DNA of 64,000 nucleotides from the NCBI GenBank assembly GCA_019056805.1, contig DXJG01000002.1, forward strand, positions 347,103 to 411,102, read 5' to 3'. The DNA is from Candidatus Baldrarchaeota archaeon. GTDB lineage: Archaea > Asgardarchaeota > Baldrarchaeia > Baldrarchaeales > DXJG01. Both the position numbers and the translations under genes were made by a program. This document shows, piece after piece, positions 2,226 through 29,000 of this stretch; within the stretch, counting starts at the first letter, position 1, and every line of letters begins with the position of its first letter. The notes below the pieces were generated by a model, which did no database searches, was not told where the DNA came from, and saw nothing but the letters and a program-made list of their open reading frames with translations.

Positions 2226-2918
2226 CTAGCCACTACGTCTTACTAGTTTTCCATTCTTTATTTCGAATATCTTGTCTCCGCTCTTACTAAACTTCTTTAC
2301 TAATTCGTTTTTAGCTGTTATGAAAATTATTGCAGCCCTTTTTTCAGAGTTGTATTTCCTTAAAAGCTCTACTACCTTTTTCTCCCATTCCTCATCTAAA
2401 CCAGCGGTTGGTTCATCTGCAAAAACCATCTTAGGATCGTTTATTAAAGCTCTAGCTATTGCAACTGCACGCCGTTCACCATCGCTTAACTCTGTTGGAA
2501 AATGTTCAGCACGGTATTTCATGCCTAGTTTTTCGAGCAATTGCAAGCTTTTTTCACGAATTTCTTTATCTGAAAATTCTGACGGATACAAAGGAGCTTC
2601 TACATTTTCAACCGCCGTAAGTGATGGAATAAGATTTACATCCTGAAAAATAAGTCCCATTTTTTCTCTTCTAATTTTCGCTAAGTATTCCTCATCCTTG
2701 TCGGTGAGAGTATCGTTTTCAAATATTATAAGACCACTATCAGGCTTGTCTAAACCGCTTAGAACATTGACTAAGGTTGTTTTTCCTTGTCCACGCGGAC
2801 CAACAATAAATACAAAGTCACCTTCATCAATTGAAAAATTAACCTTATCTAAAACCGTTATAATCTCATCGTTCCTTTTGTAAGTTTTAACTATATTTCG
2901 AGCTTCCAATATAGCCAT
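2226..2918 (-). CDS. ABC transporter ATP-binding protein, LolD/MacB type, with atypical motifs
   Basis: This 230-residue ABC ATPase should power the FtsX-like permease encoded just upstream (gap of 10 bases). Walker A is GPRGQGKTT, the Q-loop is in IFQDVNLIP, the signature is LSDGERRAVAIARAL and Walker B is MVFADEPTAGLDEEW. Two points depart from the family. The signature has LSDGE rather than LSGGQ, and the H-loop region reads FITAKNE, where an active ATPase has a histidine (V-T-H-D). Length is typical for a LolD-like subunit. The ATG follows GGTGAT by about 6 bases. It ends in TAG. ATPase activity may be weak or need a partner. Confidence 0.9.
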   Translation of the reverse strand: MAILEARNIVKTYKRNDEIITVLDKVNFSIDEGDFVFIVGPRGQGKTTLVNVLSGLDKPDSGLIIFENDTLTDKDEEYLAKIRREKMGLIFQDVNLIPSLTAVENVEAPLYPSEFSDKEIREKSLQLLEKLGMKYRAEHFPTELSDGERRAVAIARALINDPKMVFADEPTAGLDEEWEKKVVELLRKYNSEKRAAIIFITAKNELVKKFSKSGDKIFEIKNGKLVRRSG

Positions 2919-2928
2919 TCATTATCAC

Positions 2929-4047
2929 CTACCTTTCAACTCTTCTTAAAGCTTCAATGGGCTTTACTTTTAGAACACCTGAAAACGCAATTTTCATCCC
3001 TGGGATTTGTGAAATTAATACAACAACTAGGGACAAAATAATTGTCAGAGGCCCTAACGGTATGAACACAAACCCTATTAATTTTCTGTACGATATTAAG
3101 ATGAGTAAAGCAACGACAAACCCCAGTATGAGAGATCCTAGATTCTCAGCTATTACTAAAGTTCCAAGATCACTACCACTCCAACCAATTGCTCTTAGAA
3201 TTGCTAAAGATCTTTTTCTCCACCTTACATTAAGAAATGCAAAAAGTACACCAACTATAATGCTACCAATTATTGCATAAATCAACATGAGAACTCTAGG
3301 TTGGAATTTTGCTGCATTCTGGCCATAAGTTCGATATTCTGGTGGTTTGAAATCTTCGCTGTATCTTTCTGCAAATTCAGAACCAAATTCCTCGACTTTT
3401 TTCCATGCATCCCAGAAAAATCCTTTAACTAAAACAACTATTGAATACACGTACTTTTCTAAGTTTTTCTGAGATGCTAGCGTATCTACGTCTTCCTCCC
3501 AACCAATAATCCACTCTTCTTCATCATAAGGAAGCACATCTCTATCGTAAAATCCTACTATGTTAAATTCTACTTCTCCGATTTCGATTTTGCTACCTAA
3601 ACCTAGACTTATAGTATCTCCAGTTCTTAGTCTAAGTTGATTTTCATCACTTATGATTGCCTCTCCTCTTCCCGCTATGTATCGCCCCTTTTCAATCGTG
3701 CTTGGGTTAACTTCTCTTAAACACCAAATCTTATCAGGAGATATTGCAAACATTTTTGCCCCAAGAGCATCTAATTTAACATACCATATAACTACGGCTC
3801 TACTTACTCCCTGCTTTTCGTTTAAAGTTCTTACAAGATCCGAAACTTCCTCAACAGTAAGTTCGGTTTTAGGTTTCAGTACTATGCCCTTAACATCTAA
3901 TAGTTCATTAGTTTGAAAAGCATCTACAAAATTTAAAGAATTAAGAGTTAAGGAAAAAACTACGAGATAAATTAAAGTGAAAATTAAAAACCGACGTTTT
4001 GCACGCAATAACAGAACAATTCCTTTCTCCAGAAGTCTTAGCTTCAA
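2929..4047 (-). CDS. FtsX/MacB-like ABC transporter permease
   Basis: A 372-residue membrane protein with the FtsX-family plan. One transmembrane helix lies near residues 18-38, then an extracytoplasmic domain of about 200 residues, then three helices in the last 130 residues (VLMLIYAIIGSIIVGVLF, NLGSLILGFVVALLILISY and LTIILSLVVVLISQ). The cytoplasmic turn KRSLAILRAIGWSGSDL matches the conserved FtsX loop R-x-x-I-x-x-L-x-A-x-G. It forms a two-gene unit with the downstream ATPase. Such exporters move lipids, lipoproteins or peptides or transmit force; the substrate here is unknown. The secreted protease gene follows on the same strand but 327 bases away. Confidence 0.85.
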   Translation of the reverse strand: MKLRLLEKGIVLLLRAKRRFLIFTLIYLVVFSLTLNSLNFVDAFQTNELLDVKGIVLKPKTELTVEEVSDLVRTLNEKQGVSRAVVIWYVKLDALGAKMFAISPDKIWCLREVNPSTIEKGRYIAGRGEAIISDENQLRLRTGDTISLGLGSKIEIGEVEFNIVGFYDRDVLPYDEEEWIIGWEEDVDTLASQKNLEKYVYSIVVLVKGFFWDAWKKVEEFGSEFAERYSEDFKPPEYRTYGQNAAKFQPRVLMLIYAIIGSIIVGVLFAFLNVRWRKRSLAILRAIGWSGSDLGTLVIAENLGSLILGFVVALLILISYRKLIGFVFIPLGPLTIILSLVVVLISQIPGMKIAFSGVLKVKPIEALRRVER

Positions 4048-4155
4048 TTTAACTCACCAAACCCAGTCAAACAATTCATAATTATAACTACTACAATAAA
4101 TAATCGATCTAATAAAGGTTAGTTAATTAAATATACTTTCTTGTATTTTTCGATA

Positions 4156-5577
4156 TTAAATGCTATACAAGGATCCTCGAGCTAAAACTACAATGTCTTT
4201 AGCATATTTTCGATAATATCTCTTAAATTGCATAGGTTTTTCAGTATGAATCGGAATTATTCTTTTTGGGCATATATCTTTTAAGAATTTTCTTATCTCT
4301 AAAGGACCTGCATGTCCTGATGAGTGTACATGTATCATGGACAACCCGTAAAATTCCAGCCAATTTAAAAGTTTTTCGAAGCTTAATTCTTTTTCTTCAT
4401 TAAAAGGCTCACTTGTACTTAATATATATAAACTACCTTCGGGAGGTCTTAATTGCTTTACTTGGGTAATGGAGTCTACAGAAGTGCAGAAAATGAACTT
4501 TTCCCCTTTCATTCTTATCTCGTCATAGCTTATCACTCTTCCTCTCTGCCGCAAATTTTCTAATATTTTCTTTTCCCAATTGCTGTAACGTTTCTTTTGA
4601 GGGTCAAAAACTAAAATGTCTTCGCTTTTTTCCAAACATGGTGTCTCTAGTCCTTTACAATTATTCATAGCTGACAAAACAAAATAGTGTCTCGTACTTA
4701 ATACAATATTTCTCTTACTTTCTCTCGCTACTCTCAGAAATGTTCTAAAACGATCAAAGTCTGTCATATTAAAATCTGCAATTATTAAATCTTCATATGC
4801 TTCCACGATTCTAGAAACCTTTTCTCTAACCTCATTTTCATTAGAAACTGTCGATTTGTCAACATGAGTTCCTTCGCAAATCAATATTTCGGGTGACCCC
4901 TCATCTAATATTTTATCTTTAAATTCTTGAGTTAAATGACTGGCATGACCATGCATTCTAAAGTCGCCAGTATAAACTATAGTTCCCCCGCTGCTGTGTA
5001 TTAAGAATCCGTAAGCTCCCGGAACGCTATGATCCACATGCACTGGTTCTATTTCAAGGCTGTGAATTTTTATTTTATCACCCGAACGAAATGTTTTAAA
5101 ACTAAGATGGAAGTAGTTTGTTTCTAAATTCAAAGTCGAAGTTTCCATACGTGCTTTAACAATTTTTTCTGCACATTCACCAAGATATATTGGAATTTTT
5201 CTATTAAGTAAACTTATGTGACCATAATGGTCTAAATGAGAATGCGAAATAAAGACGGCATCCACAGGTGGTTCAGGTTCTTCTTCAGAATAATCTTCGT
5301 TCTTCCACTTTTTTCTTTTTTCACGTGAAGCTGTAGTAATATCGCATGCGATGGTGTAAAGATTAGCAATGTCGGGTATAGATCCCACAGAAATAAGTTC
5401 CTCTATTGAAGAAGGTCTTGTAAAAGGAAATTCATAGTATCGCCGCGATATTTCAAAACTTTTACCAAAATCCAAGAAAACTCTTACGTCATAACCTTTA
5501 TCATCGATTAAAATTTTGTTACCACCAATCTCTTCTACACCACCAAAAGCAGTAATAACAACTTTTTCTACGCCCAA
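4156..5577 (-). CDS. RNase J-like beta-CASP metallo-beta-lactamase nuclease
   Basis: A metallo-beta-lactamase/beta-CASP protein of RNase J type, expected to degrade or process RNA in the cytoplasm. Zinc motifs are complete: HSHLDHYGH (residues about 112-120), HVDHSVPG, YTGDFRMHG, and near the C-terminus SSGHAGPLEIRKFL and IPIHTEKP. The beta-CASP part includes CEGTHVD. Length (473 residues) matches archaeal RNase J, which lacks the long C-terminal domain of bacterial enzymes. I choose TTG at 5577 because GGAGG sits 8 bases upstream; an earlier TTG at 5592 overlaps that ribosome site. A general MBL-fold hydrolase is the alternative. Confidence 0.85.
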   Translation of the reverse strand: MGVEKVVITAFGGVEEIGGNKILIDDKGYDVRVFLDFGKSFEISRRYYEFPFTRPSSIEELISVGSIPDIANLYTIACDITTASREKRKKWKNEDYSEEEPEPPVDAVFISHSHLDHYGHISLLNRKIPIYLGECAEKIVKARMETSTLNLETNYFHLSFKTFRSGDKIKIHSLEIEPVHVDHSVPGAYGFLIHSSGGTIVYTGDFRMHGHASHLTQEFKDKILDEGSPEILICEGTHVDKSTVSNENEVREKVSRIVEAYEDLIIADFNMTDFDRFRTFLRVARESKRNIVLSTRHYFVLSAMNNCKGLETPCLEKSEDILVFDPQKKRYSNWEKKILENLRQRGRVISYDEIRMKGEKFIFCTSVDSITQVKQLRPPEGSLYILSTSEPFNEEKELSFEKLLNWLEFYGLSMIHVHSSGHAGPLEIRKFLKDICPKRIIPIHTEKPMQFKRYYRKYAKDIVVLARGSLYSI

Positions 5578-5671
5578 TAAGTGTTCCTCCAAGAATATAA
5601 GTCAATATTTTTATTTTCCTAGGATTTTAGTTAAAATGTTTTCTTTCAACCTAAACCTTTTTACGATGATA

Positions 5672-5681
5672 ATTTATACAT
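5672..5681 (+). promoter_or_regulatory. TATA box of the DUF151 gene, probably leaderless mRNA
   Basis: The element ATTTATACAT lies 20-28 bases before the first possible start (TTG 5700) and no ribosome site precedes it. Archaeal transcription starts about 25 bases after the TATA centre, so the mRNA should begin at or next to the start codon. Confidence 0.45.
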
Positions 5682-5699
5682 AACTCAACACTACAAGAG

Positions 5700-6167
5700 T
5701 TGGTTAGTTTGTCTGAAAAATATGTTGAAGTAAAAATATTTGAAGTTGTAAGCTTAGTAACGCCCTTTGGCCCAGTACCCGCACTACTTTTGGAAGATAA
5801 TCAAGAAAGAATTCTTCCTGTTGTTGTTGGCAGAGAAGTCGCAAATTCCATTAAAGCGTTTATCGAGGGCAGAGAAGAGGAACCAACTGATATATGGACG
5901 CTCGCATACAATATTCTTTCCAGGTATGAAGGGGAAGTAAAACAAGCAATGATATACGATCTAAAAGAAAAAAGATTTCTGGCAAAAATGATACTAAATA
6001 TCAAAGGAGAAGACGTAGAATTCAAAGGAAGACCAAGCGATACAATATCCTTTGCAATTAGAGCAAATAAACCCATATTAGTAGCTGAAAGAATAATGAA
6101 TGAAGTTTCTATCCCAAAGAGCCAATTAAAATCCGAGCCAGAACGTGAAGAACAACCTCAATCCTAA
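5700..6167 (+). CDS. DUF151 (bifunctional nuclease-like) domain protein
   Basis: A 155-residue protein whose first 130 residues match the DUF151/BFN domain. Visible family features are the early VSLVTPFGPVPALLLED segment, the ILPVVVGREVANSI motif and the RPSDTISFAIRANKPILV segment. DUF151 proteins are small proteins widespread in bacteria and archaea; nuclease activity is reported for some, and the cellular role is unclear. The C-terminal tail is charged. Either TTG 5700 or TTG 5709 could be the start, and neither has a ribosome site, so leaderless translation is likely. A divergent paralogue lies at 7755-8204. Confidence 0.85.
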   Translation: MVSLSEKYVEVKIFEVVSLVTPFGPVPALLLEDNQERILPVVVGREVANSIKAFIEGREEEPTDIWTLAYNILSRYEGEVKQAMIYDLKEKRFLAKMILNIKGEDVEFKGRPSDTISFAIRANKPILVAERIMNEVSIPKSQLKSEPEREEQPQS

Positions 6168-6280
6168 TCTTTATCTTACCATCATTAGTAGTAATAATTG
6201 AAATAACATTAAATACCTAAAATACCCAGTATATCATGGAACTTTTCATAATATCATATTCCAAAATGTAGGTGAATTTA

Positions 6281-6859
6281 ATGGGACAAGAAGCTTCCAA
6301 AGAAAAAACGATTAGTGAAACGGGTAGTTCATCTATAGAAGAAATTAAGGCTAGCATAGAGGCATTAAAAATTGCTATAACAAGATTATCAAGTAGGGTT
6401 AAGGAACTAGAAAATACTTTATCAAATGTAGCAGCAGAGATCGGAAAAACTGTAGGAGATGCTGTAATAGGAGCGGTTCGTGAAGCAACCAAGGAACTCA
6501 GAGAAACTTCTGAAAAACTCCTTGAATCGTCGGAAGAAATTACAAAAGCAACAATAGATATGAATAAGAAACTCACTCAAAGCATAGATGAAATAGCTAA
6601 AAAAGATACACTTAACCGCCTCATGGAAGAGGTTCGTCAATTTGCAAATATTAAAGTCATGGAGCTCATTTTAGGATTAAATGCTATTAGAAGTTCTTCA
6701 CCCCAGTTAAGCCTTGAATCAAAAGAAACAGCCCCAGTAGCCGCACCGGTTAGGACAGCAACGACTTCAAAACAAACATCTAAAAGAGGAGAAAGAAAAA
6801 AGAGAGATGAAGAAGAGGAAGAAGGATTGATAAGACCATCTCAACTTTTCAGACGGTAA
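6281..6859 (+). CDS. Coiled-coil protein of unknown function
   Basis: 192 residues, nearly all predicted helix. A long heptad-rich coiled coil runs from about residue 20 to 130 (for example ALKIAITRLSSRVKELENTL and ETSEKLLESSEEITKATID). A low-complexity Pro/Ala/Thr and Arg/Lys/Glu tail follows and ends in QLFRR. There is no signal peptide or membrane segment. The ATG at 6281 is preceded by GGTGA at a good distance; GTG 6272 overlaps that site and is less likely. A TATA-like element (ATTAAATACC) lies near 6206-6216. The composition suggests a scaffold or filament-associated protein. I do not recognise the family. Confidence 0.75.
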   Translation: MGQEASKEKTISETGSSSIEEIKASIEALKIAITRLSSRVKELENTLSNVAAEIGKTVGDAVIGAVREATKELRETSEKLLESSEEITKATIDMNKKLTQSIDEIAKKDTLNRLMEEVRQFANIKVMELILGLNAIRSSSPQLSLESKETAPVAAPVRTATTSKQTSKRGERKKRDEEEEEGLIRPSQLFRR

Positions 6860-6914
6860 TATTAATATCAACAATTTATATGCATAGCACCCGCGTAGTG
6901 CTGGGGGTAACTCG

Positions 6915-7679
6915 ATGCCTCTTGAGAATTACAAACATTTTATTACACGCGTAATTCAAAATAATATTAACGAGTATGTACATTTAATCTTTAACAGGTA
7001 TGGGAGAGGAACATTTCCAGGACCTACCTTAAAACTAGTATTTCAGAGAAACAGGACTACTATAAACTCCAGTTTCTTGTATGAAAATTTCACCGGAGCT
7101 TTTCTAGCATATTTTCTACCAGATGGTGATAAATTTAAAGTAACGGGAAACATAGTTTCTCACCAAGATTTAACATCTCAATTATCAGAAATTATTTCAT
7201 CACTTTCGATGAAGAAAAGTAAGAACCTATATAAAGCTACGATACAAATGGAGCTTCTTGCAGAGAACATAAAAGATCTATACTCATTACTGGGTGAAAA
7301 ATGTTACCTTTTGATTTCAATTAAGCCTTTAAAAGGCACAATTCCCAGACTCCAAACCAAAAAGAGTATTCCAAAATTAACTGAGCAGATAATTGAGCTT
7401 AAACCCGATTTTTGCAAAGCATATCTACAGAGTAACGAAGAAATTTTAGATGTTTTTGTTAAAGAAGCTCTACCAGACTTCCAAGATAAAATTGATATTC
7501 CGTTTAAAAACCTCAATTTAAAAAACGAATTCGTTATCACGGATATAATTTTGCCAGAAAACTGGAAATCCATGCCTTCTAAAGAAGTGAGGCTTAAAGC
7601 AAAGCGGAAAGGAAAAATAGTAAGAACTCTTATTGTTGATGGAAAAACTCTAAAAACAGAACATGAGTTCCTAGTTTAA
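6915..7679 (+). CDS. Unrecognised 254-residue protein
   Basis: A soluble mixed alpha/beta protein without a signal peptide, membrane helix or a motif I can name. It has a basic stretch near the C-terminus (EVRLKAKRKGKIVRTL) followed by a short beta-like tail. A TATA-like element (CAATTTATATG) lies near 6869-6880, about 40 bases upstream. It sits between a coiled-coil protein and a DUF151 paralogue, all on the same strand but each with its own spacer. Continuous coding and position support a real gene; function is unknown. Confidence 0.7.
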   Translation: MPLENYKHFITRVIQNNINEYVHLIFNRYGRGTFPGPTLKLVFQRNRTTINSSFLYENFTGAFLAYFLPDGDKFKVTGNIVSHQDLTSQLSEIISSLSMKKSKNLYKATIQMELLAENIKDLYSLLGEKCYLLISIKPLKGTIPRLQTKKSIPKLTEQIIELKPDFCKAYLQSNEEILDVFVKEALPDFQDKIDIPFKNLNLKNEFVITDIILPENWKSMPSKEVRLKAKRKGKIVRTLIVDGKTLKTEHEFLV

Positions 7680-12853: not shown

Positions 12854-15800
12854 ATGCTTGAAACGTTTAGAGAAATTATATTTCTTTCTAATGAGTTAAT
12901 TCAACAATTACCTGATCCTCGGGAGATTCGTGATAAATTTGAGGAATTTAATGACTGGGTTAATAAAATAAATGAGATAGAAAGAGAGTTTGCTTCTACT
13001 TCTAGATTTAATTTCAAAAAGAAAAGAGAGCTTAAGGAACGTCTCGAAAAAGAGATTGAAAAAGCTAAAAAAATGGCTAATGAACTTTTAGAAGCTAGTG
13101 AAAGACTACTTTTATCGCAATCAAGTATTGTAAGAGAGTTTGCTTCTAAACATTCTAACATTTGTGACAGGACGTTACTAGTAATTGTCCAAAAATTACC
13201 GGAACAAACATCTCTTGGCGACATTACAGTAAAAACAACACATGTTAAAAATATTCTTTCAACTCTTCGAAAAGCTGTTGCACAAATCAAAAACGACGTC
13301 TTAAAATGGGTAAATAACTTAGAAGCTGAAATAACCGAATCGGTTTTTATTATTCAACAAATATCAGAAAAACTAGGAGTACCGATCTCCGTAGAGAAAG
13401 ATAGTTTTATTGAAGAAATAAAAGAAACAAAAATTTTTCTTGAGCAGTTTTGGAAAATTGACGTATCTACAGTAGACAGTTTAATAAGTAAAGTTAAGAG
13501 AAGCTACGAATCATTAAGAAACGATATGAATACAAGTCTTTCAACCCTGATAACTTCTTTTAAAAATCAAATTTTACAATTAAGAGAAGATATACGACTA
13601 GTTGAAGATATCGTGGTCCCACCTTTTCCAATCATTCACACGAATCTTTCCGAAACAACCATGGGAAGTATTTCTATCAATTTATTGAGAACTCTCGCTA
13701 AGGACGTGGAAACTGTAAAACTTTTTGAAGATGATGTTAAAAGGAGACTTCTCAACAAAATAATTGTTTTAATGCGTAGAAATAAATCAAAAATGGAAGT
13801 ATTTAAGAAATACGTAGAAATAGATTCCTCAAAATTATCTCTTACATTAAAAGAGGCTCCGACGATAGACGAACCTTTAAATTCGTTACTAATACATCTT
13901 AAAGATCTCAAGGAGGAGGAAGAATATCTTAATAAAATGGAAAAGGCGGCAATCAATGGGTTAAAAAGTGATTTAAGAAGCAAACTAATGGAACTTTCTT
14001 CTAAAACGGAGGTAATTGTTGAAGAAGGGGTAAAACTTTCTCCAGAAATCACCAGAAAAATAAATGTTCTTTTATCTCAAATTGAAAATATTAAAGACGT
14101 GGATAGTGCCTTAAGTCTTGAAACAGAATATGTGAGGTTATTGGAAGGAATCAAGGATTCTATTAAAAGAGAATTTTTAAGTGAAAGAGGTAGAATCTTA
14201 GAAGTTGTGAGTGAGTTTTTAAGAGATGTAGAAGCTCCTGTGTTAAAGGGTCAAACTATAGAAGAACTTTTGCAAAATCTTCAAGAATTAAAAAGATGGA
14301 AAACAAAAGTAAAAAATCTACTAAAGGAAGAAGTTGTCAAGGCTATCGAAGAACTTGAGAGGGGGAATACTCTTTTAAAGGATACTTCTTGGGAAAATCC
14401 TGAGCTTTTTAAAATCCTTACTCAGATGAGAAATGAAATTAGAGCAGCAAATAAAATCGGAGAAATAGTAGAGATATTAAATAAGATTAATGACTTGAAA
14501 ACTGATGAGGAACAGAGACTTAAAGCAGCTCTTGAAACTATTAAAAAAGAATATATGGAAGTTGTAAAGGTTATAGAAGATCTTGTTGTTGACGTTTCTC
14601 CTTCAATACGTGCACCAATTCACGTAGATGTAAAAAACAAAACATACATTGAACTTACCGAGATTTTACCAGAACTGGGAGAAAAAATAAAACAGAGAGA
14701 TAAACTTGTAAAAGAAACACTTGAAAACTTTCTTTTAAAAATCAAAAATGAAGTTGAACGTATTCCATCACCGTATCGTGAGATTTTCGACCAAGTAATC
14801 AAAGAAATAGATAATAGTATTATCAATTTGAGAAAGGTAAATACTGTCTATGAGGTAAAGGAAGCCTTCAATTTAGCTATAAAAGAAATTAATGGTATGA
14901 TAAAAGAAAAATTCGCAGCATTAAAATCAAACTTAATACTGAAAACCAGGATGGCTTTCATAAAAACGAGAAATCCACCTGATGTAAGTGATGCGGTAGA
15001 AAAACTCAATGGAATAATTATAGAGCAATGGGAAATCTCTAGGGCAATATACGAAGTAAATAAAATATTTCAAGAAGAAATTCTAGGGAAATTACGAGAA
15101 TTTATTGAAAACGAAGCAAGAGATTACATTAACCTCTTAAACAAATTAAAGATGTACAATATTGAAGTAGAAGAATTTATAATAAAACTGGAAGAGGTAT
15201 TAGCAAAATTTTCATCAAAGAAGGAACTTGATATACAGGAAATTGGAGAATTAGGAAAAACGGTTAATGATGTAATAACTAGTTCAGCACTGAGACAAAC
15301 CTTCGCCAAATGGCTTAATTTAACCGTCGAAGCCTTAGAGAAAACTATAAACTATGTGTCTAAGTGGGTCCAAGTTGAAGAAGACTTCTACGAAGTTATA
15401 CCTACCCTTAAAAAACAATCAGAACTGCTCGATTCTCTAGAAATCGAAACTATTACAAAAATGATAGAACACACACATAAACTATGGGAAATAGCTAGAA
15501 GTTACCTTGAAGAAATCGAAAAACGTCGCGACATGATTTTTGAAGAAGAATTAAAGAAAATTCCATATCACGATTCAATAATGAAAATTTGGGATAAAAA
15601 TCGTAAAGAATTTGACAAAACCATTTTTCCCCTATCCAAATTATTTGAACTTAAAGAAGAAATATCAAAAGAGCAAACACCAAAAATATTAAAATTAATA
15701 GAAGAAAAAGAGAAACTCGAACAAGAATGGTTAGAAAAAGAAAAACAAATCTCTATCTGGCATAAATCAATAAAAATATTTTTAACGGGCATTAGTCCGA

Positions 15801-15925
15801 TGGACAACGAAGAGATTAAGGAAAGAAAACTGAAAGATGTCAAAGAAAAGATAAAAAGAATCTATAAAAGGAAAGATGTTCAAACATATCTAATTCTTGC
15901 AGCTCAAACATTATTAGGTGATTGA
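12854..15925 (+). CDS. Giant coiled-coil protein of the FtsZ-like operon
   Basis: 1023 residues, almost entirely helical and highly charged (rich in Lys, Glu, Ile, Leu), with repeated heptads and few Cys, Gly or Pro. I see no Walker motif, so it is not an SMC/Rad50 ATPase, and no signal peptide or membrane helix. Several spans resemble each other loosely (for example the segments ending in PFPIIHTNL near 255, SPSIRAPIHVD near 585 and RIPSPYREIF near 635), which suggests spectrin-like helical repeats. The stop TGA overlaps the ribosome region of the next gene, an FtsZ/tubulin-family GTPase, with a 2-base gap to its likely start. It probably acts as a long scaffold or linker for that GTPase. 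Function is inferred only from context. Confidence 0.85.
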   Translation: MLETFREIIFLSNELIQQLPDPREIRDKFEEFNDWVNKINEIEREFASTSRFNFKKKRELKERLEKEIEKAKKMANELLEASERLLLSQSSIVREFASKHSNICDRTLLVIVQKLPEQTSLGDITVKTTHVKNILSTLRKAVAQIKNDVLKWVNNLEAEITESVFIIQQISEKLGVPISVEKDSFIEEIKETKIFLEQFWKIDVSTVDSLISKVKRSYESLRNDMNTSLSTLITSFKNQILQLREDIRLVEDIVVPPFPIIHTNLSETTMGSISINLLRTLAKDVETVKLFEDDVKRRLLNKIIVLMRRNKSKMEVFKKYVEIDSSKLSLTLKEAPTIDEPLNSLLIHLKDLKEEEEYLNKMEKAAINGLKSDLRSKLMELSSKTEVIVEEGVKLSPEITRKINVLLSQIENIKDVDSALSLETEYVRLLEGIKDSIKREFLSERGRILEVVSEFLRDVEAPVLKGQTIEELLQNLQELKRWKTKVKNLLKEEVVKAIEELERGNTLLKDTSWENPELFKILTQMRNEIRAANKIGEIVEILNKINDLKTDEEQRLKAALETIKKEYMEVVKVIEDLVVDVSPSIRAPIHVDVKNKTYIELTEILPELGEKIKQRDKLVKETLENFLLKIKNEVERIPSPYREIFDQVIKEIDNSIINLRKVNTVYEVKEAFNLAIKEINGMIKEKFAALKSNLILKTRMAFIKTRNPPDVSDAVEKLNGIIIEQWEISRAIYEVNKIFQEEILGKLREFIENEARDYINLLNKLKMYNIEVEEFIIKLEEVLAKFSSKKELDIQEIGELGKTVNDVITSSALRQTFAKWLNLTVEALEKTINYVSKWVQVEEDFYEVIPTLKKQSELLDSLEIETITKMIEHTHKLWEIARSYLEEIEKRRDMIFEEELKKIPYHDSIMKIWDKNRKEFDKTIFPLSKLFELKEEISKEQTPKILKLIEEKEKLEQEWLEKEKQISIWHKSIKIFLTGISPMDNEEIKERKLKDVKEKIKRIYKRKDVQTYLILAAQTLLGD

Positions 15926-15927
15926 AT

Positions 15928-17301
15928 TTGGAAAGAGAAAGTGAAACTCAAACTTACACATCAAATGTATTTTTAATAGGCTTAGGGGAATGCGGAGGAA
16001 ATTTAGTCGGAGAATACATCAATAAAGAAAGAGAAGAAGGAAAACTGGAAAGAGTCACAGGATATCTAATTTTAAACACAAATCGTTATGACCTTGTAAA
16101 AACGAAAGAAAAATACAAAGTACCTCCAGAAAACATGTTAATGTTCGGAGATACTCCAATGGGTGTTGGCGGACGATTTATGGAAGCATACAACCTTATT
16201 GAAATATGGTGGGATGCAATAGCGGAGCAAATAAGAAACCTTGGTGGCGATGTTGCTAGTACCTTCATTATTTTAACATCAACGGGCGGTGGCACTGGTT
16301 GTGGCGCAACCCCGGCCTTAATTCGAAAAATTAGAGAAACTTTCGGTAGAAGTGGCCGTGTGTACATATATGTAATGGGAGTACTCCCATTTGAGGATCA
16401 AACAAGTGAAGCTCTTAACACTATATGGCTTCTTCACAGGCTTCTTCAAGAACCTGAAAAGGGAGAATCCGCCGATCTTGCCATACTTTTGTCTAATAGA
16501 ACTATGCTAAGAAGACGATTACAACATGAAAGATCAATGATAATGGATATTCTTGGTAGTCGTCTTGGAGTAGATATCACAGATGTAACACAATTAAATT
16601 CGATTGTTTTAGGTTCTGAACTTCCATTTAGCGCAAAAGTACTGGAACAAACTTTTGTAGATATTGTTAATCCATTGATCATACAAACACTTGTTAAATT
16701 GTTACAGCTTTCCACGTTTATGCCTGGAAAGAATATTTTTCCTGTCACAGATATGGCCGACATAGCTAATAAACTGGATACTATTTCTATTCCAGCTATT
16801 TTCACCGAAATACCTTACCAAACAACTATGGATGAACAAGGCAACATAGATATGGAGGGACTTGCGATGTTTCTCCAAGAGGTAGTTCATGTGGCTATTA
16901 AGTATTACAGTCTTGTAGATATTCAAGAACATCCTCAAGCATCAAGCGTATTATATCTCCTAAGCGGGCCTCGACATATCGTTGATGTACATTTGGATAG
17001 ACCAATAAAGACAGCATTAAATGAGTATATAGCGGAAGGTGCAGCAGTTACTCCAACATTTATTCAATATGATTCATGGGAAGTACCAATGGATCTTCTA
17101 ATACTGTTAGGACTTCCCAAGCTAGAGGAAATCCGAGATCTTGTAAGCGAAGCCGAAAAACTGATAAATCTTCATAGTGGCAGCAAAATTAAGGAGAGAT
17201 GGTTCTTAAAAAGCAAAGGCGTTTCGAAGGAGACGTTAGTTGAAGCTTTGAATGAGATAAAAGATTTATTTGACATTGGAGGAACTGCGGGTGAAGAGTA
17301 A
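15928..17301 (+). CDS. FtsZ/tubulin-superfamily GTPase, atypical lineage
   Basis: A 457-residue cytoskeletal GTPase. The nucleotide loops read in order: T1 GLGECGGN (18-25), nearer tubulin GQCGN than classical FtsZ; T2 LILNTNRYDL; T3 GDTPMGVGGRF; T4 signature STGGGTGCG (118-126); T5 PFEDQTSEA; T6 NRTML. The synergy loop T7 reads PVTDMADIANKL, keeping the two catalytic acids (Asp275 and Asp278) of N-x-D-x-x-D but not the Asn. It should bind GTP and polymerise, with hydrolysis plausible. It lacks the C-terminal FtsZ peptide that binds SepF/FtsA and ends in a helical charged tail. TTG 15928 follows GGTGA by 6 bases. It is flanked and overlapped by helical-protein genes. It might belong to the FtsZ-like families of Makarova and Koonin or to Tubulin_2. 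Confidence 0.88.
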   Translation: MERESETQTYTSNVFLIGLGECGGNLVGEYINKEREEGKLERVTGYLILNTNRYDLVKTKEKYKVPPENMLMFGDTPMGVGGRFMEAYNLIEIWWDAIAEQIRNLGGDVASTFIILTSTGGGTGCGATPALIRKIRETFGRSGRVYIYVMGVLPFEDQTSEALNTIWLLHRLLQEPEKGESADLAILLSNRTMLRRRLQHERSMIMDILGSRLGVDITDVTQLNSIVLGSELPFSAKVLEQTFVDIVNPLIIQTLVKLLQLSTFMPGKNIFPVTDMADIANKLDTISIPAIFTEIPYQTTMDEQGNIDMEGLAMFLQEVVHVAIKYYSLVDIQEHPQASSVLYLLSGPRHIVDVHLDRPIKTALNEYIAEGAAVTPTFIQYDSWEVPMDLLILLGLPKLEEIRDLVSEAEKLINLHSGSKIKERWFLKSKGVSKETLVEALNEIKDLFDIGGTAGEE

Positions 17302-18187
17302 CAACGAGGAAGCTTCTGTAAACGATCTAAAAAATGATATTCAAAAATTAAGGGAAGAACTAAAAATAATAATAGAACTTCAAAAAATCTTCTTACAAAT
17401 ATTAAAACAAATAATAGCAAACTACCATGCAAATTTAGATATAAATTTGACTGAAAATTTAAAATCTTTCCTTGAATTGAATAAAAATGGCGACAAACGT
17501 CTTAAATCACTATTTCAAGAGGTTCAAAACTTCCTGAACGAAATTACTATCTTACAACACTTAGAATACGAACAGATACCATTAGAAAAAGAGGTTGATA
17601 AATGGAGAATAATATCATCCACAGAAAGGCTAATTGAAAAATTCTCTCCCTCTCATGACACTTTAATTCCAAATCTACTTCTCGAAACAATTAAAATTAT
17701 ACATCAATGCGAAATACCTGAAAAATGGAGAGAAAAAATAGTTAAAAAATTATCATTGGAAATTAGAAGTCTAATTCAAGAAATGTTTACAAAAGACCCA
17801 TATATGGGGCTTCTTAAAAAAATTAAAGATGGACAAATTAAACTTAGTGAAAAAGAACTCAAATCTGTTGAGAAAATTGTTGAAGAGAGAATTAAAACAC
17901 TTATTAACTTACTAGAAAATGCTAATAAAAGTTGGAAAGATAGCATTCTGTCTGCGCAATTTTCTCTAGAGGCTTTTAATTGGGGGACGGCAAAAACCGA
18001 GAAAAGATTCTTACAATTATTTTATCAAAAAGCTAAGAAGCTTATAGAAAGCGTTGGCGAGGAATCAAAGTTTGAAAACAAAATATTAAATTCTGAGGTA
18101 GCTATATTAATTTGTGAACTCGCCGATCAAATTATAAAGATACCAAAAACTCGAATGAAAATAGAGGAGATGAAAAGAAAAATATAA
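17291..18187 (+). CDS. Helical protein of the FtsZ-like operon
   Basis: 298 residues, all-helical, with a coiled coil near residues 10-45 (LKNDIQKLREELKIIIELQK) and further helices to the end. There is no signal peptide, membrane helix or known motif. GTG 17291 lies 8 bases after GGAGG inside the end of the GTPase gene, and the two genes overlap by 11 bases, so they are translationally coupled. That makes it a probable binding partner or regulator of the GTPase. Function is unknown. Confidence 0.8.
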   Translation: MKSNNEEASVNDLKNDIQKLREELKIIIELQKIFLQILKQIIANYHANLDINLTENLKSFLELNKNGDKRLKSLFQEVQNFLNEITILQHLEYEQIPLEKEVDKWRIISSTERLIEKFSPSHDTLIPNLLLETIKIIHQCEIPEKWREKIVKKLSLEIRSLIQEMFTKDPYMGLLKKIKDGQIKLSEKELKSVEKIVEERIKTLINLLENANKSWKDSILSAQFSLEAFNWGTAKTEKRFLQLFYQKAKKLIESVGEESKFENKILNSEVAILICELADQIIKIPKTRMKIEEMKRKI

Positions 18188-18610: not shown

Positions 18611-20266
18611 TCAAGTCCATTTTTCATTAATAGAGATTTTTTTGAAGAGCGGACTTGGTTTCTTAATTAAATGTCCCGAAGGAATTAGTAGTTCTTTTGC
18701 TGTAGTCCAATTCTCCTTATCGTGTACTGAACCGTCAAGGTTTAACATTTCCCAGATTTTCTCAGAGCTAAAGGGTATAAATGGTTCCATTAATATGGCT
18801 AAGCAACGAGTTAATTGACAGCATAAGTTTAGTGTGGTTTCAGCAATTTCTTTTTCGCTTTTCATTTTGTGCCACGGGGCTTTATCGTTGAGGTACTTGT
18901 TTCCTTTCCTTGCTAAATTCATAGCTTCACTAAGTGCATCCTTAAATTTAAACTTCTCTAAAAGTTCAGCAACGGTATCTGGAGTTCTCTGAATACTTGC
19001 TATAAGTTCTTTGTCAAGCTCGTCAAGTTCATGTCTTTCAGGAACTTTTCCATCAAACTGTTTATAGATAAATACAAGGGTTCTATGCACAAAGTTACCT
19101 AAGATATCAACTAATTCGTTATTGATTCTCGCTTGGAAATCGTCCCAAGTAAAGCTTGAATCTTTTGTCTCCGGTCTTATAGATATCAGATAATATCTCC
19201 AATAATCAACTGGAAATTTTTCTAACGCTTCATCAGCCCAGACTCCCCATCTTCTACTCTTAGAAAACGGTTTTCCACAAAAGAGTAAGAATTCTGTGGA
19301 AGCAACGTTCCAAGGCAAAATATATTTTTCTTCACTTGCCATGAGTAGTGCTGGCAAAATTAATACGTGGAACGGTATGTTATCTTTGGCTATAAAGTAC
19401 ACACTCTTTGTCTGAGGATCAAACCAATATTTTTTCCACTTATCGGGTTTTCCTACATTTTTTGCCCATTCTATTGTTGCAGATATATACCCTAGAACAG
19501 CTTCCATCCAAACATAAATCGTCTTTTTCTCAGCACCTGGAAATGGTGCTGATATCCCCCACTCATTGTCCCTAGTAAGTGATCTAGGTTTTAACCCCTC
19601 ATTTAATAGGTTTAAGCTAAAGTTTCTAGCATTTTCTGGTAATTGCTTATTACTCTCTACATATTTCTTTAATTCCTCTTCAAATTTCGATAAGTCAAAA
19701 AACCAATGAGTAGTCTTTTTAATCTCTGGAGTAGAACCACATATCGCGCAACGCGGAGATTCTAATTCTATAGGATCTAAAAGTCTCCCGCAATTTTCAC
19801 ATTGGTCCCCTCTAGCATTTTCATAATTGCAATAAGGACAAACACCTTCAACAAACCTATCCGGTAAAAATCTTTGACATTTAGGGCAGTAGAGCATTTC
19901 AATTTCTTTTGAAAATATGTAGCCATTTTCATAGACTTTCCTATAAAAGTTTTGAACAAATTCCTTGTGAACAGGACTTTCTGTTCGTGTATAATTGTCA
20001 AAAGATATTCCCCATTCATCAAAAATCTTCTTAACTTTCTGATGCATCTCATCAGTGAGTTCACGTGGCGACATCCCTCTTTTTATCGCTTCAACTTCAA
20101 TTGGAGTACCATGTTCGTCAGAACCAGAGACAAACACTACTTCATCTCCTCTAAGCCTAAGATATCTTGCAAAAACGTCCGCAGATAATACTGAACCTAT
20201 CATGGTTCCTAAATGAGGTACATAGTTTATATATGGCCAAGCTGAACATACAAGCCATCTACGCAT
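18611..20266 (-). CDS. metG: Methionyl-tRNA synthetase, copy 1 (KDNIPFH type)
   Basis: 551 residues, class I MetRS. Signature HLGT in PYINYVPHLGTMIG, KMSKS counterpart PFSKSRRWG. The connective domain has two zinc knuckles (CPKCQRF...CPYC and CENCG...CAICG). The methionine pocket reads VWMEAVLGYISAT and FIAKDNIPFHVLILP, a type I associate with many archaeal MetRS. The C-terminal tRNA-binding (EMAP/Trbp111) domain is absent. ATG 20266 follows GGAGGT by 7 bases; the GTG at 20284 overlaps that site. It is encoded just downstream of a second, different MetRS. Which copy is the main enzyme cannot be told from sequence. Confidence 0.93.
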   Translation of the reverse strand: MRRWLVCSAWPYINYVPHLGTMIGSVLSADVFARYLRLRGDEVVFVSGSDEHGTPIEVEAIKRGMSPRELTDEMHQKVKKIFDEWGISFDNYTRTESPVHKEFVQNFYRKVYENGYIFSKEIEMLYCPKCQRFLPDRFVEGVCPYCNYENARGDQCENCGRLLDPIELESPRCAICGSTPEIKKTTHWFFDLSKFEEELKKYVESNKQLPENARNFSLNLLNEGLKPRSLTRDNEWGISAPFPGAEKKTIYVWMEAVLGYISATIEWAKNVGKPDKWKKYWFDPQTKSVYFIAKDNIPFHVLILPALLMASEEKYILPWNVASTEFLLFCGKPFSKSRRWGVWADEALEKFPVDYWRYYLISIRPETKDSSFTWDDFQARINNELVDILGNFVHRTLVFIYKQFDGKVPERHELDELDKELIASIQRTPDTVAELLEKFKFKDALSEAMNLARKGNKYLNDKAPWHKMKSEKEIAETTLNLCCQLTRCLAILMEPFIPFSSEKIWEMLNLDGSVHDKENWTTAKELLIPSGHLIKKPSPLFKKISINEKWT

Positions 20267-20312
20267 CTTTCTTACCTCCGACACGTAAAAATCTATTTAT
20301 CAGCGTGTTATT

Positions 20313-21986
20313 TTACTTGTTTTCAGTTTTCATTGATTCTAATATTTCTTCTATTTTTTCATCCGCAATTTTCTGAAATATTGGTTCAGGTTTTTTAATT
20401 AAATGACCTGGTGGAATTTCAACTTCAGTTAAATAACTCCAGCTAAATTTTTCTATATTTAGATATTCCAAAACTTTTTTGGCTGAGGAGGGTATAAAGG
20501 GAACTAGCAATATAGCTATAGTTTTTACAAGTTGAGCAGCAACAAACAATGTTGTCTTAGCATCATTCACATTGCTTTTAACCGTTTTCCAAGGTTCTTT
20601 GAGATTTAAATATTTATTTCCTTCTCTAGCCAAATTTATAATGTTTTCAAGGGCTAATTTTAACCTATATGTTCCCATAAGTTTTTCTATCTTTTCTATA
20701 TCTCTCTTGATAAGTTCTATGATTCTTTTGTCTTCTTCTTTATATTCAGATGGTTCTGGAACTTTACCTTGAAAATATCTGTAAATAAAGGTTAAAACTC
20801 GATGTATAAAATTTCCAATGATCCCAACGAGATCGTTATTAATTCTATCTTTAAATTCTTTCCAACTCCAGTCGGTATCATCTAAAGACAGAGGAGAAGC
20901 AAGTATTAAATAAAATCTTGCGTAATCTGCAGGGAAATGTTTAAGGAAGTCTTCAACCGCAATATACCATCCTCTACTCTTTGAAAACTTCTTTTTTTCT
21001 AATGTGAGAAATCCTCGAGTTGGTATAGCTGAAGGAAGGTTAAAGCCTAGGTTTGTACCCTTAAGCATTGCAGGCCAAAACAGATAGTGGTGGTAAATGA
21101 TATCCTTTCCGATATGGTGAATAATTTTTGTTTCTGGATTCTTCCACCATCTTTCCCAATTATCGCCGTGATCTTTACACCATTTCATGGTGGAGGCAAT
21201 ATATCCAATTGGAGCATCAAACCACACATAAACCTTTTTTCCCTTAGAGTCTTCATAGGGAAGTTCAAATCCCCAGTAGTCTTTTTCTCTTGTGATGTCC
21301 CAGTCTTTTAGTCCCTCCTCTATCCATCTAAGTACGTAATTCACAACTTGGGATTGCATTTCCTTATTGTTTTTTAACCAGTTTTTAAGGAAATCTGAAA
21401 ACGCTGAAAGTTTAAAAATGAAATGAGAACTTTCTTTAGGAATAGGAGTAGAGCCGCACAATGCGCATTTAGGGTCTAAAATTTCTCCAAATTCAAACGT
21501 TGTACCACACTTCTCACAATAATCGCTATACTGATCTTGGGCTCCACATCTCGGACATGTACCCTTTACATAACGGTCTGGTAGATAACGTTGACAGTTG
21601 GGACAATAATGCAGTTTCACATAGTCTTTGTATATGTAGCCATTTTCTCTCAGCGATTTCAAAAATAAATGAGTTAACTCTTCATTTTCGGGGCTATGTG
21701 TTCTGTAAAAAACGTCGAATTCGATGTCTAGTGATTTGAAAATTTTCTTGTCAAGTTCATGGTAATTCTTTACGAATTCTTCTACGTTTTTTCCAGCTTT
21801 TTCGGCTGCGAGCTGAATTGGGGTACCATGTTCATCTGTAGCACAAATATAGAGAGTTTCAACACCTTTTAAACGGTAAAAACGAGCAAGAACATCAGCA
21901 GGCAAATAGGTACTTTTCATATGACCTAGATGAGGTATTCCATTAGCATAGGGTAAAGCTGCTGTTATTAACACCCTTTTGAACAT
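20313..21986 (-). CDS. metG: Methionyl-tRNA synthetase, copy 2 (DAPIGY type)
   Basis: 557 residues with full MetRS features: PYANGIPHLGHM, KKFSKSRGW, two zinc knuckles (CPNCQRY...CPRCG and CEKCG...CALCG), and a standard methionine pocket VWFDAPIGYIAS with HHIGKDIIYHHYLFWPAM. This pocket resembles the E. coli-like type more than copy 1 does. It also lacks the C-terminal tRNA-binding domain. ATG 21986 follows GGAGG. It lies 46 bases upstream of copy 1 on the same strand, so both may be co-transcribed. Confidence 0.94.
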   Translation of the reverse strand: MFKRVLITAALPYANGIPHLGHMKSTYLPADVLARFYRLKGVETLYICATDEHGTPIQLAAEKAGKNVEEFVKNYHELDKKIFKSLDIEFDVFYRTHSPENEELTHLFLKSLRENGYIYKDYVKLHYCPNCQRYLPDRYVKGTCPRCGAQDQYSDYCEKCGTTFEFGEILDPKCALCGSTPIPKESSHFIFKLSAFSDFLKNWLKNNKEMQSQVVNYVLRWIEEGLKDWDITREKDYWGFELPYEDSKGKKVYVWFDAPIGYIASTMKWCKDHGDNWERWWKNPETKIIHHIGKDIIYHHYLFWPAMLKGTNLGFNLPSAIPTRGFLTLEKKKFSKSRGWYIAVEDFLKHFPADYARFYLILASPLSLDDTDWSWKEFKDRINNDLVGIIGNFIHRVLTFIYRYFQGKVPEPSEYKEEDKRIIELIKRDIEKIEKLMGTYRLKLALENIINLAREGNKYLNLKEPWKTVKSNVNDAKTTLFVAAQLVKTIAILLVPFIPSSAKKVLEYLNIEKFSWSYLTEVEIPPGHLIKKPEPIFQKIADEKIEEILESMKTENK

Positions 21987-26086: not shown

Positions 26087-29000
26087 ATGGGTATCAAATA
26101 CGCCGAAAACCCTTGGAACGATGAAGAAATACTAAAAACGTTAAAACCCTACGTAGCAAAATGGTTCAAACAAACATTCGAAACATTCACCCCACCACAA
26201 AAATACGCAATCCCACTAATCCAAAAAGGAGAAAACACGCTCGTATTCAGCCCCACTGGTAGCGGAAAATGTATAACACCAGACCAAAAAGTCTTAGTAA
26301 AAATAGACGGGCTTGTATACCTATTAAAAGGCGAAGAACTGATACAAATGGCTAAAACCGAGGGAAAAACACTACAAAAAATAGATAATGGAATTCTATA
26401 CGAAATCCCTTCCCTTAAGGTATTTTCGTTAAAAGAAAATAAGATAGTTGAATCTCCAGCTTATATATACATCGAAGACTATAATGGAGAAATTATCGAA
26501 ATAGAAACAGAAGCTGGGAGAAAGATTAAAGTCACACCAAATCATCCGCTGTTAAAAGAGGACATCGACGGAACCTGGAGATGGACTCCAGCTGAGAAAT
26601 TGAAAGTCGGTGATAGAATAGCTGTAGCTAGAGAGATAAACTATAAATCTTCTATTAAAAAGCTTAAACTAAAAGAATCACTAAAAGCGTTGAAAACGAA
26701 GTTTAAAGAAGTCCTTACATACAAAGACTTTCTTAAACTTAGGAAAAGAATAGATCATGTTGGTTTTAAAAAGCTAAGTTTAGAAGAATTAAATCAAGTC
26801 AGAATCTTCTGCAAGTTAAAGTATACTAAAATAGCTAAGGAAACCGGTATTGGGCTAACTACAGTATGGAACTTCTTTAGAGGAAAAACCATTTATAAAA
26901 AGGACTTGATTTTAAAAATCCTAAGAGAAAACTTCCCTAACTCTGTAGAAGAAAATAGAATCTTCATTCTAGGAAGAAACGGCGATATAATAAGTTTTAA
27001 ATATCCTAAAAAGATAGATGAAAAACTTGTCAAGTGGGTCGCTTTCGTCTTAAGTGAAGGTCACATTCAAGCAAGTTCCCGCGATAATTTTATAGACTTC
27101 ATGATGGTTGCTCAAGCAAAAAACAAAAAATTATTAAAGGAGTTTCTATCCATCACCAAAGAGCTTTTCGATGTAGAATTTAGAAAAAAAGATGAAATAA
27201 ACTGGGTTTTGAACTCTAGAGCTTTCCTCGAATTCATCTCAGTGTATCTAGATCTACAGCCAAATAGCCGAGAAAGAAGGAAAAAAATGCCAGAGTGGAT
27301 ATTGAGCCTCGATAAACCCTTAATGCGCATTTTCCTTAGATGGTTCTTCACACTAGATGCGGAAGTAAGAGACCAAATAGTCCTCTTTCAAGCAAGCGAA
27401 GATATCATCGACAAAATTGCATATATGCTACTTAGATTTGGAATTTTCCCTAGCCTAAATGTAAAATATAAATTTGCTTCAAACACTACCGAGAAGAAAA
27501 AAAGAAAATACTATAGTGTCAGCATATTTGGCATAAGAAACCTAAGAAAATTCGATCAAGAAATTGGTTTAGAAAGAGAACCACCTGCTTCCTACATTAA
27601 TCTATTAAAAGCCAAACCAAGCGGTGAACATGTAGGAAAATTCCACTTAAATTTCAAGGAAATATCTGAAATTAGAAAGATACTTGGGTGTTCTTGGCAC
27701 GACGAATTTGAAAAAAGATATGGAAACATATACGAGGTTGTAAGAAGAACAGGAATGATAACCTTAGGTGCAACACAAAAACTACAGGAACTATTAAAAC
27801 AAGATCTTCAAAAACTAAGCTTTAACGGAAATATTAAACTAATAGATTCCTTAAGAAAAATCCTAGGCTCAGAAATCTTTTTCCTAAAAATAAAGAAAAT
27901 TACCAAAATTCATTACGAAGGTAAATTGCTGGATTTCACCGTACCAAAGCTAAGAAACTTTATTGGCGGCAAGGGCGCTGTAGTTCTCCATAATACTCTT
28001 GCGGCTTTCTTATTTGCTATAAATTGGCTTTTTGGGCTGGGTGAGGAGGGGAAGTTAGAAGATACTGTTTATGTTGTTTATGTTTCGCCTCTTCGTGCGT
28101 TGGCGAACGATATTCGTAAAAATCTTCTTGTTCCTTTGGAGGGGATCCGTGAAGTTGCAAATGGTATGGGTTTAGAATTACCTGAAATTAGAGCATTTGT
28201 AAGAACTGGAGATACTCCTGCAAGTGAAAAGGCTAAGATGCTTAAGAAACCTCCTCACATATTAATAACAACTCCGGAAACTCTTTCAATAGTTTTGTGT
28301 GCGCCTAGATTTCGTGAAAAACTAAAAACAGTTAGATATGTCATTGTGGACGAAGTACACGAGCTTTGCGATAATAAACGGGGAGTTCATCTCTCATTAA
28401 GCTTGGAACGACTGCGAGAAATAGCAGAACAAGAATTTGTACGCATAGGACTAAGTGCAACTCAAGCACCATTAGAAGAAATAGCAAAATGGCTAGTAGG
28501 ATATAGAGAGAATGAAAAACTAAGAGATGTAACCATAGTAAACATATATGAAACAAAGAAGCTAGATATGAGAGTGATATGCCCAGTAAGAGACCTAATA
28601 CACACAGACTACGCATATGTAAACGCAAGAATGTACGAAATACTAAGAGACCTTGTAGAAAAACACAGAACAACCCTAATATTCACAAACACAAGAAGCG
28701 GAGCAGAAAGCGTAACATTCCACCTAAAACAAGTATTCGGAGAAGAATACATAGACCAAATAGCAACACATCATGGAAGCTTATCAAGAACAACAAGACT
28801 AGAAGTAGAAGATTTACTAAAACAAGGACAATTAAAAGCAGTAATTTGCGTTTCAGAGGACTCAAGAATCTTAACAAATCACTACTGGAAACCAATAATA
28901 GAGGTTAAACCACAAGACAAAGTTGTATACCTAGATGACCAACTAAAATTAAAAGAAGGAACATTCGCCGGACGTGTCTCTGTGCCCTATTACGACGAGG

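What the first reader, a model, noticed from the sequence alone, without database searches (positions are those of the whole stretch)
12854..18187. Candidate undescribed cytoskeletal operon: giant coiled coil, FtsZ/tubulin-like GTPase, helical partner
Three genes are coupled (a 2-base gap, then an 11-base overlap). The middle one has all tubulin/FtsZ nucleotide loops, a T1 loop nearer tubulin (GLGECGGN), and a T7 loop that keeps both catalytic acids. It lacks the FtsZ C-terminal peptide. The partners are a 1023-residue and a 298-residue helical protein with no known motif. Inference: a filament system with a dedicated long linker, perhaps for membrane or chromosome organisation and separate from division FtsZ.
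Basis: partly seen in the sequence, partly recalled or inferred. Interest (0 to 1): 0.85.

Follow-up and report, generated by a model that had tools for sequence, protein, structure and literature searches.

The report
Asgard-only tubulin-like operon with helical partners
[quoted passage not shown] it likely builds a GTP-driven filament that the long partner would scaffold, separate from the cell's ordinary division FtsZ.

Summary
The three genes are real and coupled as described: A (12854-15925), B (15928-17301, GTPase), C (17291-18187), in a Baldrarchaeota-like Asgard genome. B passes the Pfam Tubulin model (58 bits, cut-off 33) but not the FtsZ model (23.5 vs 295). Trees reject grouping B with CetZ (p-AU 0.00085) or FtsZ (0.0099), not with tubulins (0.19); long branches make this fallible. 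The genome also has two ordinary FtsZ, SepF and actin. Of 227 Asgard genomes, B is in 72, A in 70, C in 68, all three in 65; 54 of 60 near-full-length B genes have A upstream and C downstream. In three genomes a second B has its own second A. Beyond the phylum only weak GTPase-domain matches appeared. A and C have no Pfam family or significant solved-fold match. The GTPase group was probably glimpsed in 2023 as 'Asg.Tub' (PMC9871819); I found no description of the fixed partners. Filament formation by B and scaffolding by A are inferences. The 'coiled coil' is better called a predicted series of short helices, and the T7 assignment is likely, not shown.

The parts
12854..15925 (+). Gene A: 1023-aa predicted all-helical protein, no known family; most conserved in its C-terminal ~120 residues
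   Evidence: ORF; orthologue directly upstream of the GTPase gene in relatives; no Pfam family for the window protein; AlphaFold2 32 helices, pLDDT 64.5; 11 of 23 invariant columns of a 14-row alignment lie after residue 900
15928..17301 (+). Gene B: tubulin/FtsZ-superfamily GTPase, 457 aa (TTG 15928; alternative TTG 15922)
   Evidence: Pfam PF00091 58.1 bits, cut-off 33; TIGR00065 ftsZ 23.5 vs 295.2; family conservation; trees
17291..18187 (+). Gene C: 298-aa predicted all-helical protein, no known family (GTG 17291; longer ORF from TTG 17270)
   Evidence: ORF; orthologue directly downstream of B in relatives; AlphaFold2 pLDDT 82.7, 12 helices; no PDB fold at E<=0.001
15916..15921 (+). Likely ribosome-binding site AGGTGA before B
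   Evidence: read from sequence
17278..17282 (+). Likely ribosome-binding site GGAGG before C, inside the end of B
   Evidence: read from sequence
16750..16761 (+). Invariant D277xxD280 pair of B (numbered from TTG 15922), likely the T7 catalytic loop
   Evidence: D277 and D280 in 68 of 68 distinct family members; position assigned by motif and spacing, against two automatic alignments

Best explanation
This is a conserved, likely cytoskeletal three-gene module of Asgard archaea in which B, a tubulin/FtsZ-family GTPase that groups with neither FtsZ nor CetZ, likely polymerises into GTP-dependent filaments, A is predicted to act as a long helical rod that binds and organises those filaments, and C would serve as a helical accessory or regulator. 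Shown: the fixed order A-B-C, the family-wide conservation, the joint presence and absence, the paired duplication of A and B, the separate FtsZ copies, and purifying selection. Inferred: head-to-tail protofilaments (from the conserved nucleotide loops and the likely DxxD catalytic pair), A as scaffold (size, all-helical prediction, constant neighbour, conserved C-terminal part as the likely B-contact), C as regulator, and a role outside division such as cell shape, protrusions or membrane positioning.
For: GTPase core: Pfam Tubulin above cut-off; T1, T3, T4, T6 and D277/D280 conserved. Distinct family: one side of a branch with 100/99 support in two trees; B+CetZ rejected p-AU 0.00085, B+FtsZ rejected 0.0099. 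Module: in 227 Asgard-phylum genomes B is strong in 72, A in 70, C in 68, all three in 65; C never without B; 54 of 60 near-full-length B genes have the A match upstream and the C match downstream within 3 kb on one strand. In 23 compared loci (22 genomes) A, B and C are found in 22, 23 and 21, while the next commonest neighbour family is in 10. Second copies of B in three genomes each have their own A next to them. Not the division FtsZ: two FtsZ at 169 and 166 bits and a SepF in the same genome. Selection: dN/dS 0.01-0.17.
Against: I found no report of a polymer, GTPase activity or A-B contact for this family. B's structure was not predicted (both jobs went to A and C), and its C-terminal half (219 residues) matches no tubulin-family profile significantly. 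Two automatic alignments put T7 elsewhere. A's model is of low confidence, and the C-terminal part that I take as the contact is among its poorest (pLDDT under 60 from about residue 890). Neither A nor C has a significant fold match. Conserved neighbourhood shows a functional link, not binding. Of the 72 B genomes, four lack a C match and three an A match; all seven have only partial B matches. The second B copies have no C beside them.
Confidence: 0.55

Rival explanations
1. B is a regulatory, non-polymerising GTPase: A and C form a stable helical complex and B acts as a nucleotide switch on it.
For: The C-terminal half of B is unlike known polymer-forming families by profile; B has about 40 more residues than FtsZ and CetZ between T6 and the likely T7; the partners make up about three quarters of the module's residues.
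Against: The nucleotide loops and the DxxD pair are near invariant, as expected where one subunit completes the next one's active site; B evolves slowest of the three (dN/dS 0.01-0.04).
Confidence: 0.2
2. The module segregates DNA, like the TubZRC plasmid systems, with C as adaptor.
For: Plasmid genes that I take for TubZ (annotated 'cell division protein FtsZ') also sit beside a small partner gene. Two of 28 C-family members have a weak match to the BEN domain (E 0.0023), which binds DNA (recalled).
Against: B to TubZ profile match is poor (48% probability); no plasmid match to B at E up to 10; the window's C has no Pfam family at E up to 0.01; the neighbours look like ordinary chromosomal genes (by eye).
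Confidence: 0.07
3. B is a divergent CetZ and the module a CetZ-type cell-shape system with lineage-specific helpers.
For: CetZ gives the only near-full-length profile match (98.3%, 340 columns). A GLPKxxEL...EA stretch after the last strand resembles CetZ, though not significantly on its own (-1.8 bits; E 0.029). PMC9871819 leaned to CetZ-like for Asg.Tub.
Against: B+CetZ clade rejected (p-AU 0.00085); B lies outside a CetZ clade that takes in CetZ-like proteins of unnamed other archaea. Long branches make the tree fallible.
Confidence: 0.15
4. B is an accessory part of the FtsZ division ring.
Against: B+FtsZ clade rejected; 155 of 227 genomes lack a strong B while 219 have some PF00091 match; the only neighbours found in over half of the loci compared are A and C.
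Confidence: 0.08

Closest known systems
Asg.Tub group of Santana-Molina et al. 2023 (PMC9871819; sections 8 and 9 and passages read)
   Same: Asgard-only tubulin/FtsZ-family paralogues between CetZ and tubulins; neighbours said to be mostly unknown coiled-coil genes. A Heimdallarchaeota LC_3 member of the B family (P0045) carries the public name 'Tubulin-like protein CetZ'.
   Different: The text that I read names no fixed partner families and speaks of unknown and unrelated genes; I could not match accessions (no supplement look-ups) or see its Figure 6.
CetZ (haloarchaeal plasmid genes used here, annotated 'tubulin/FtsZ family protein')
   Same: Closest profile over most of the length; non-division role reported in the literature (PMC12583498, passage).
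   Different: B is a separate clade, is longer (437-502 aa against 360-394 in the rows used), and has fixed partners A and C.
OdinTubulin locus (L084; genome unnamed, recognised by its tubulin gene and the weak ATG16 match of a neighbour, as PMC9871819 describes)
   Same: A tubulin gene flanked on both sides, same strand, by genes of 539 and 484 aa that look helical.
   Different: The A and C profiles do not match those flanking genes; the protein groups with the tubulins.
FtsZl1 / Tubulin_2 (Makarova and Koonin 2010, PMC2875224, passages read)
   Same: Divergent FtsZ-like family beside conventional FtsZ, with helical parts.
   Different: B scores under the Tubulin_2 cut-off (20 vs 27 bits); its constant neighbours A and C match no vWA, kinase or OmpA family; the helical parts are separate genes.

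Membership tests
Tubulin/FtsZ GTPase superfamily | Pfam PF00091 above gathering score | tested here: met
   58.1 bits, cut-off 33
Tubulin/FtsZ GTPase superfamily | GGGTGxG nucleotide loop (T4) conserved in the family | tested here: met
   G122 68/68, G123 68/68, G124 67/68, T125 67/68, G126 68/68, G128 68/68
Tubulin/FtsZ GTPase superfamily | T7 loop with catalytic acids after helix H7 | tested here: inconclusive
   Invariant D277/D280 fits by motif and spacing; searches align T7 elsewhere; no structure of B
FtsZ | NCBIfam TIGR00065 score over cut-off | tested here: not met
   23.5 bits vs 295.2
FtsZ | Groups with FtsZ in a tree | tested here: not met
   p-AU 0.0099 against B+FtsZ; long branches
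CetZ | Falls in the CetZ clade | tested here: not met
   p-AU 0.00085 against B+CetZ; tree; long branches
CetZ | Controls cell shape | not testable with these tools
   no genetics possible
Tubulin (AtubAB, OdinTubulin, eukaryotic) | Groups with tubulins | tested here: inconclusive
   on the tubulin side of a 97/95 branch; B+Tub not rejected, p-AU 0.19; only three tubulin rows, long branches, no eukaryotic tubulin in the tree
Tubulin (AtubAB, OdinTubulin, eukaryotic) | Pfam tubulin C-terminal domain | tested here: not met
   no such family listed up to E 1
FtsZl1 / Tubulin_2 | PF13809 above cut-off | tested here: not met
   20 vs 27 bits
TubZ | Strong TubZ similarity | tested here: not met
   hhalign 48% probability over 110 columns
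TubZ | TubR-like DNA-binding partner | tested here: inconclusive
   no Pfam family in the window's C at E up to 0.01; weak BEN match in 2 of 28 C members
Asg.Tub (2023) | Asgard-only tubulin/FtsZ paralogue distinct from FtsZ1/2 and tubulin | tested here: met
   (within the genomes sampled)
Asg.Tub (2023) | Same accessions as the published group | not testable with these tools
   supplement look-ups not available

The most novel reading that the evidence does not exclude
Asgard archaea own a third tubulin-superfamily cytoskeleton, on the tubulin side of the family tree and beside FtsZ and true tubulins, that comes with its own operon-encoded filament-organising protein: a filament plus dedicated microtubule-associated-protein-like scaffold that predates or parallels the eukaryotic arrangement.
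Probability: 0.35. Interest if true: 0.88.

Novelty: new variant of a known kind. Interest (0 to 1): 0.76.

Why it matters
How the eukaryotic cytoskeleton arose from Asgard archaea is an open question, so far pursued through actin, FtsZ and the AtubAB and OdinTubulin proteins. Here is a further tubulin-family GTPase, present in 72 of 227 sampled Asgard genomes, that brings two partner families, A and C, which can be expressed and tested with B at once. The A-B-C order and the family profiles give a definition that annotators can use; where the B and C hits carry a name it is 'hypothetical protein', or 'CetZ' in one case.

Tried and rejected
Tubulin-like tail of B. The MAFFT alignment lines B's C-terminal W-F-x-x-S-K-G...A motif up with the tubulin H11-H12 stretch, which would matter because microtubule-binding proteins dock there (recalled). 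The lead failed independent tests: a profile of that stretch ranks an AtubA-like tubulin second among 27 real sequences and 5,400 shuffled decoys, but with a score that decoys also reach (7.3 bits), and it finds no tubulin in 177,635 PDB sequences at E up to 10; profile-profile gives only E 0.0036, probability 9%. Kept as a lead only.

Homology of A or C to the genes beside OdinTubulin: none found at E 1e-3. Plasmid origin: no plasmid match.

Placement. A tree without tubulins and TubZ keeps B as one clade. The program warns that long branches meet in all three trees, and the AU test assumes groups named before the tree was seen, which was not the case. Row labels (CetZ, TubZ, FtsZ, AtubAB, Odin) are mine, from annotation or similarity. 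In one search I left out 8 FtsZ and 3 B rows to save time and added 15 CetZ-like or other rows.

Dropped rows. From I set aside G018 and G032 (34-36 bits, residues 11-136 only); G051, G112 and G079 (17-27 bits). In the list typed into I left out 11 weak second matches of A in genomes already listed; they change no genome count. The 17 B places without one neighbour that I do not call departures are partial matches; I did not check every contig end.
Full report
WHERE IT IS. The window lies in a 1.92-Mb genome. The nearest named records are Candidatus Baldrarchaeota and, for one locus and one C protein, Candidatus Odinarchaeota; I call the source Baldrarchaeota-like.

WHAT B IS. B passes the Pfam Tubulin model (58.1 bits, cut-off 33) and fails Tubulin_2 (20 vs 27) and the FtsZ equivalog (23.5 vs 295.2). 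In 68 distinct family members the nucleotide loops are near invariant: G-x-G-E-C-G at T1 (E23 in 65 of 65 rows with a letter there, C24 in 61), GGGTG at T4 (each position 67 or 68 of 68), N192 in 68, and a D277/D280 pair in 68 of 68 that is likely T7 (numbered from TTG 15922). B has 85 residues between the T6 asparagine and that pair, against 43 in FtsZ and 46 in CetZ (read), so there is a family-specific insert if the T7 reading holds. Against that reading, hhalign with CetZ and MAFFT align T7 to an earlier stretch, and the C-terminal half alone has no significant match.

WHERE B FALLS. Profile comparison ranks CetZ first (98.3%, 340 columns), then FtsZ (96.5%, 188), tubulins (96.1%, 126) and TubZ (48%, 110). 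In trees of 45 and 49 rows, B is one side of a branch with 100/99 support and is in neither CetZ nor FtsZ. Holding B with CetZ is rejected (p-AU 0.00085) and with FtsZ (0.0099); with tubulins it is not (0.193). In one search, B, the three tubulins and three other archaeal rows lie on one side of a 97/95 branch, but the program warns that long branches meet there. The 2023 study (PMC9871819; sections 8 and 9 and passages read) reported unstable positions for its Asg.Tub group too.

THE MODULE. I compared 22 fetched loci (L026-L047; L027 and L047 are one contig) and the window. A and C orthologues flank B in the same order and strand wherever the contig allows, except L036 (below), although A is only 18-20% identical between the window and the more distant genomes. 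Clustering of all neighbours finds B in 23, A in 22 and C in 21 of the 23; the next neighbour family is in 10 and the one after in 6, so the flanks turn over while the trio stays. The missing A lies beyond a contig end (L045), as does one missing C (L046); the other missing C (L036) is the G021 case below.

PHYLUM-WIDE. In the 227 genomes of the phylum held, B is strong in 72 (74 at E<=1e-5, two set aside), C in 68, A in 70 (73 at E<=0.001, three set aside), all three in 65. C occurs without B in none; A without B in one (G191); B without A in three; B without C in four. There are 77 B places. In 54, the A match lies upstream and the C match downstream within 3 kb on the same strand. Seventeen others are partial B matches. 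Six are true departures: G021 (C about 8 kb away; a relative of the same genus, G221, has it adjacent), G089 and G092 (extra genes between A and B), and second B copies in G088, G092 and G098 that have a second A beside them but no C. Duplication of A and B together is good evidence that they work together.

SPECIFICITY. Among 392 relatives, 31 genomes outside the phylum match the B profile, at most with 73 bits and only in the GTPase domain, against 594-794 bits for near-full-length Asgard members. One A hit is labelled Bathyarchaeota (P0129), possibly a misassigned contig. These searches scored only the roughly 8,000 candidates sharing most words.

WHAT A AND C LOOK LIKE. Neither window protein has a Pfam family at E up to 0.01. 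C (297 residues modelled) is 12 helices at pLDDT 82.7, with its C-terminal two thirds most confident. A is modelled as 32 helices, the longest 49 residues, best between about residues 490 and 810 (pLDDT about 80), mean 64.5, and under 60 after about residue 890. No fold match is significant. No transmembrane stretch is apparent in the three window proteins. The C-terminal ~250 profile positions of A are matched in all three second copies, and the last 120 residues hold 11 of the 23 invariant columns of a 14-row alignment, so I infer that this part is the likely contact with B.

SELECTION AND CONTEXT. dN/dS is 0.01-0.04 for B, 0.08-0.16 for A and 0.09-0.17 for C in three pairs of relatives. The same genome carries two FtsZ (169 and 166 bits; both in the FtsZ part of the tree), SepF (46 bits, cut-off 27) and an actin (459 bits). 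B is therefore an addition to the division machinery, not its replacement.

HOW IT LIKELY WORKS. B likely forms head-to-tail filaments driven by GTP; A would be the long scaffold or cross-linker and C an adaptor or regulator; the job is probably shape, protrusion or membrane organisation rather than division. Each of these steps is inferred; none was tested.

LITERATURE. Searches 'Asgard/tubulin/FtsZ/CetZ' (17 of 19 listed), 'Asgard/coiled-coil/tubulin/CetZ-like' (15 of 24), 'Thorarchaeota/cytoskeleton/FtsZ/tubulin-like' (20 of 220), 'Asg.Tub' (one paper), 'AtubA/Asgard/tubulin' (one paper) and 'Baldrarchaeota/tubulin/FtsZ/cytoskeletal' (20 of 13,330) gave no paper whose listing or read passages describe the A-B-C module. 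Only open-licence PMC papers are covered. PMC12583498, PMC9856176, PMC13394414, PMC10936438 and PMC2875224 were seen as passages only. I did not see Figure 6 of PMC9871819, which draws gene neighbourhoods.

Noticed in passing
window 18611-20284 and 20313-21986 (- strand): Two adjacent genes of 557 aa each that look like methionyl-tRNA synthetases (by eye; no family search run); members of the same family lie beside the module in its nearest relatives (L026, L027, L028, L047).
   Followed up: no
window 26087-33628 (+): A single 2513-aa open reading frame, not examined.
   Followed up: no
L029-L032, L034, L035, L041-L044, downstream of C: A gene family is in 10 of 23 loci, in nine of them 80-208 bases after C on the same strand; the one scanned (L044) is an ADP-forming acyl-CoA ligase-like protein (Pfam Succ_CoA_lig, CoA_binding). 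A non-Asgard tubulin-like gene in L129 is also followed by such a gene.
   Followed up: partly
L091 (second A-B copy), 1841-5369: Two genes with GxxxxGK-type loops, which look like small-GTPase proteins (by eye), lie beside the second A-B pair.
   Followed up: no
L084, OdinTubulin locus: OdinTubulin is flanked by genes of 539 and 484 aa that look helical, a layout like A-B-C but without detectable homology.
   Followed up: partly
L036 (G021), from 8643 to about 16869: About 8 kb of extra genes separate B from C in one genome, while G221 of the same genus has them adjacent.
   Followed up: partly
L127 (non-Asgard archaeon), 3309-7326: Two different tubulin-like genes (408 and 450 aa) flank a 479-aa gene with a weak Spc25 match (E 0.0019, below cut-off).
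   Followed up: no
L090, L092, L093, L096, after C: A further gene of 284-297 aa, helical by eye, follows C, then an opposite-strand gene of about 245-265 aa; no Pfam family in the pair scanned (L090).
   Followed up: partly
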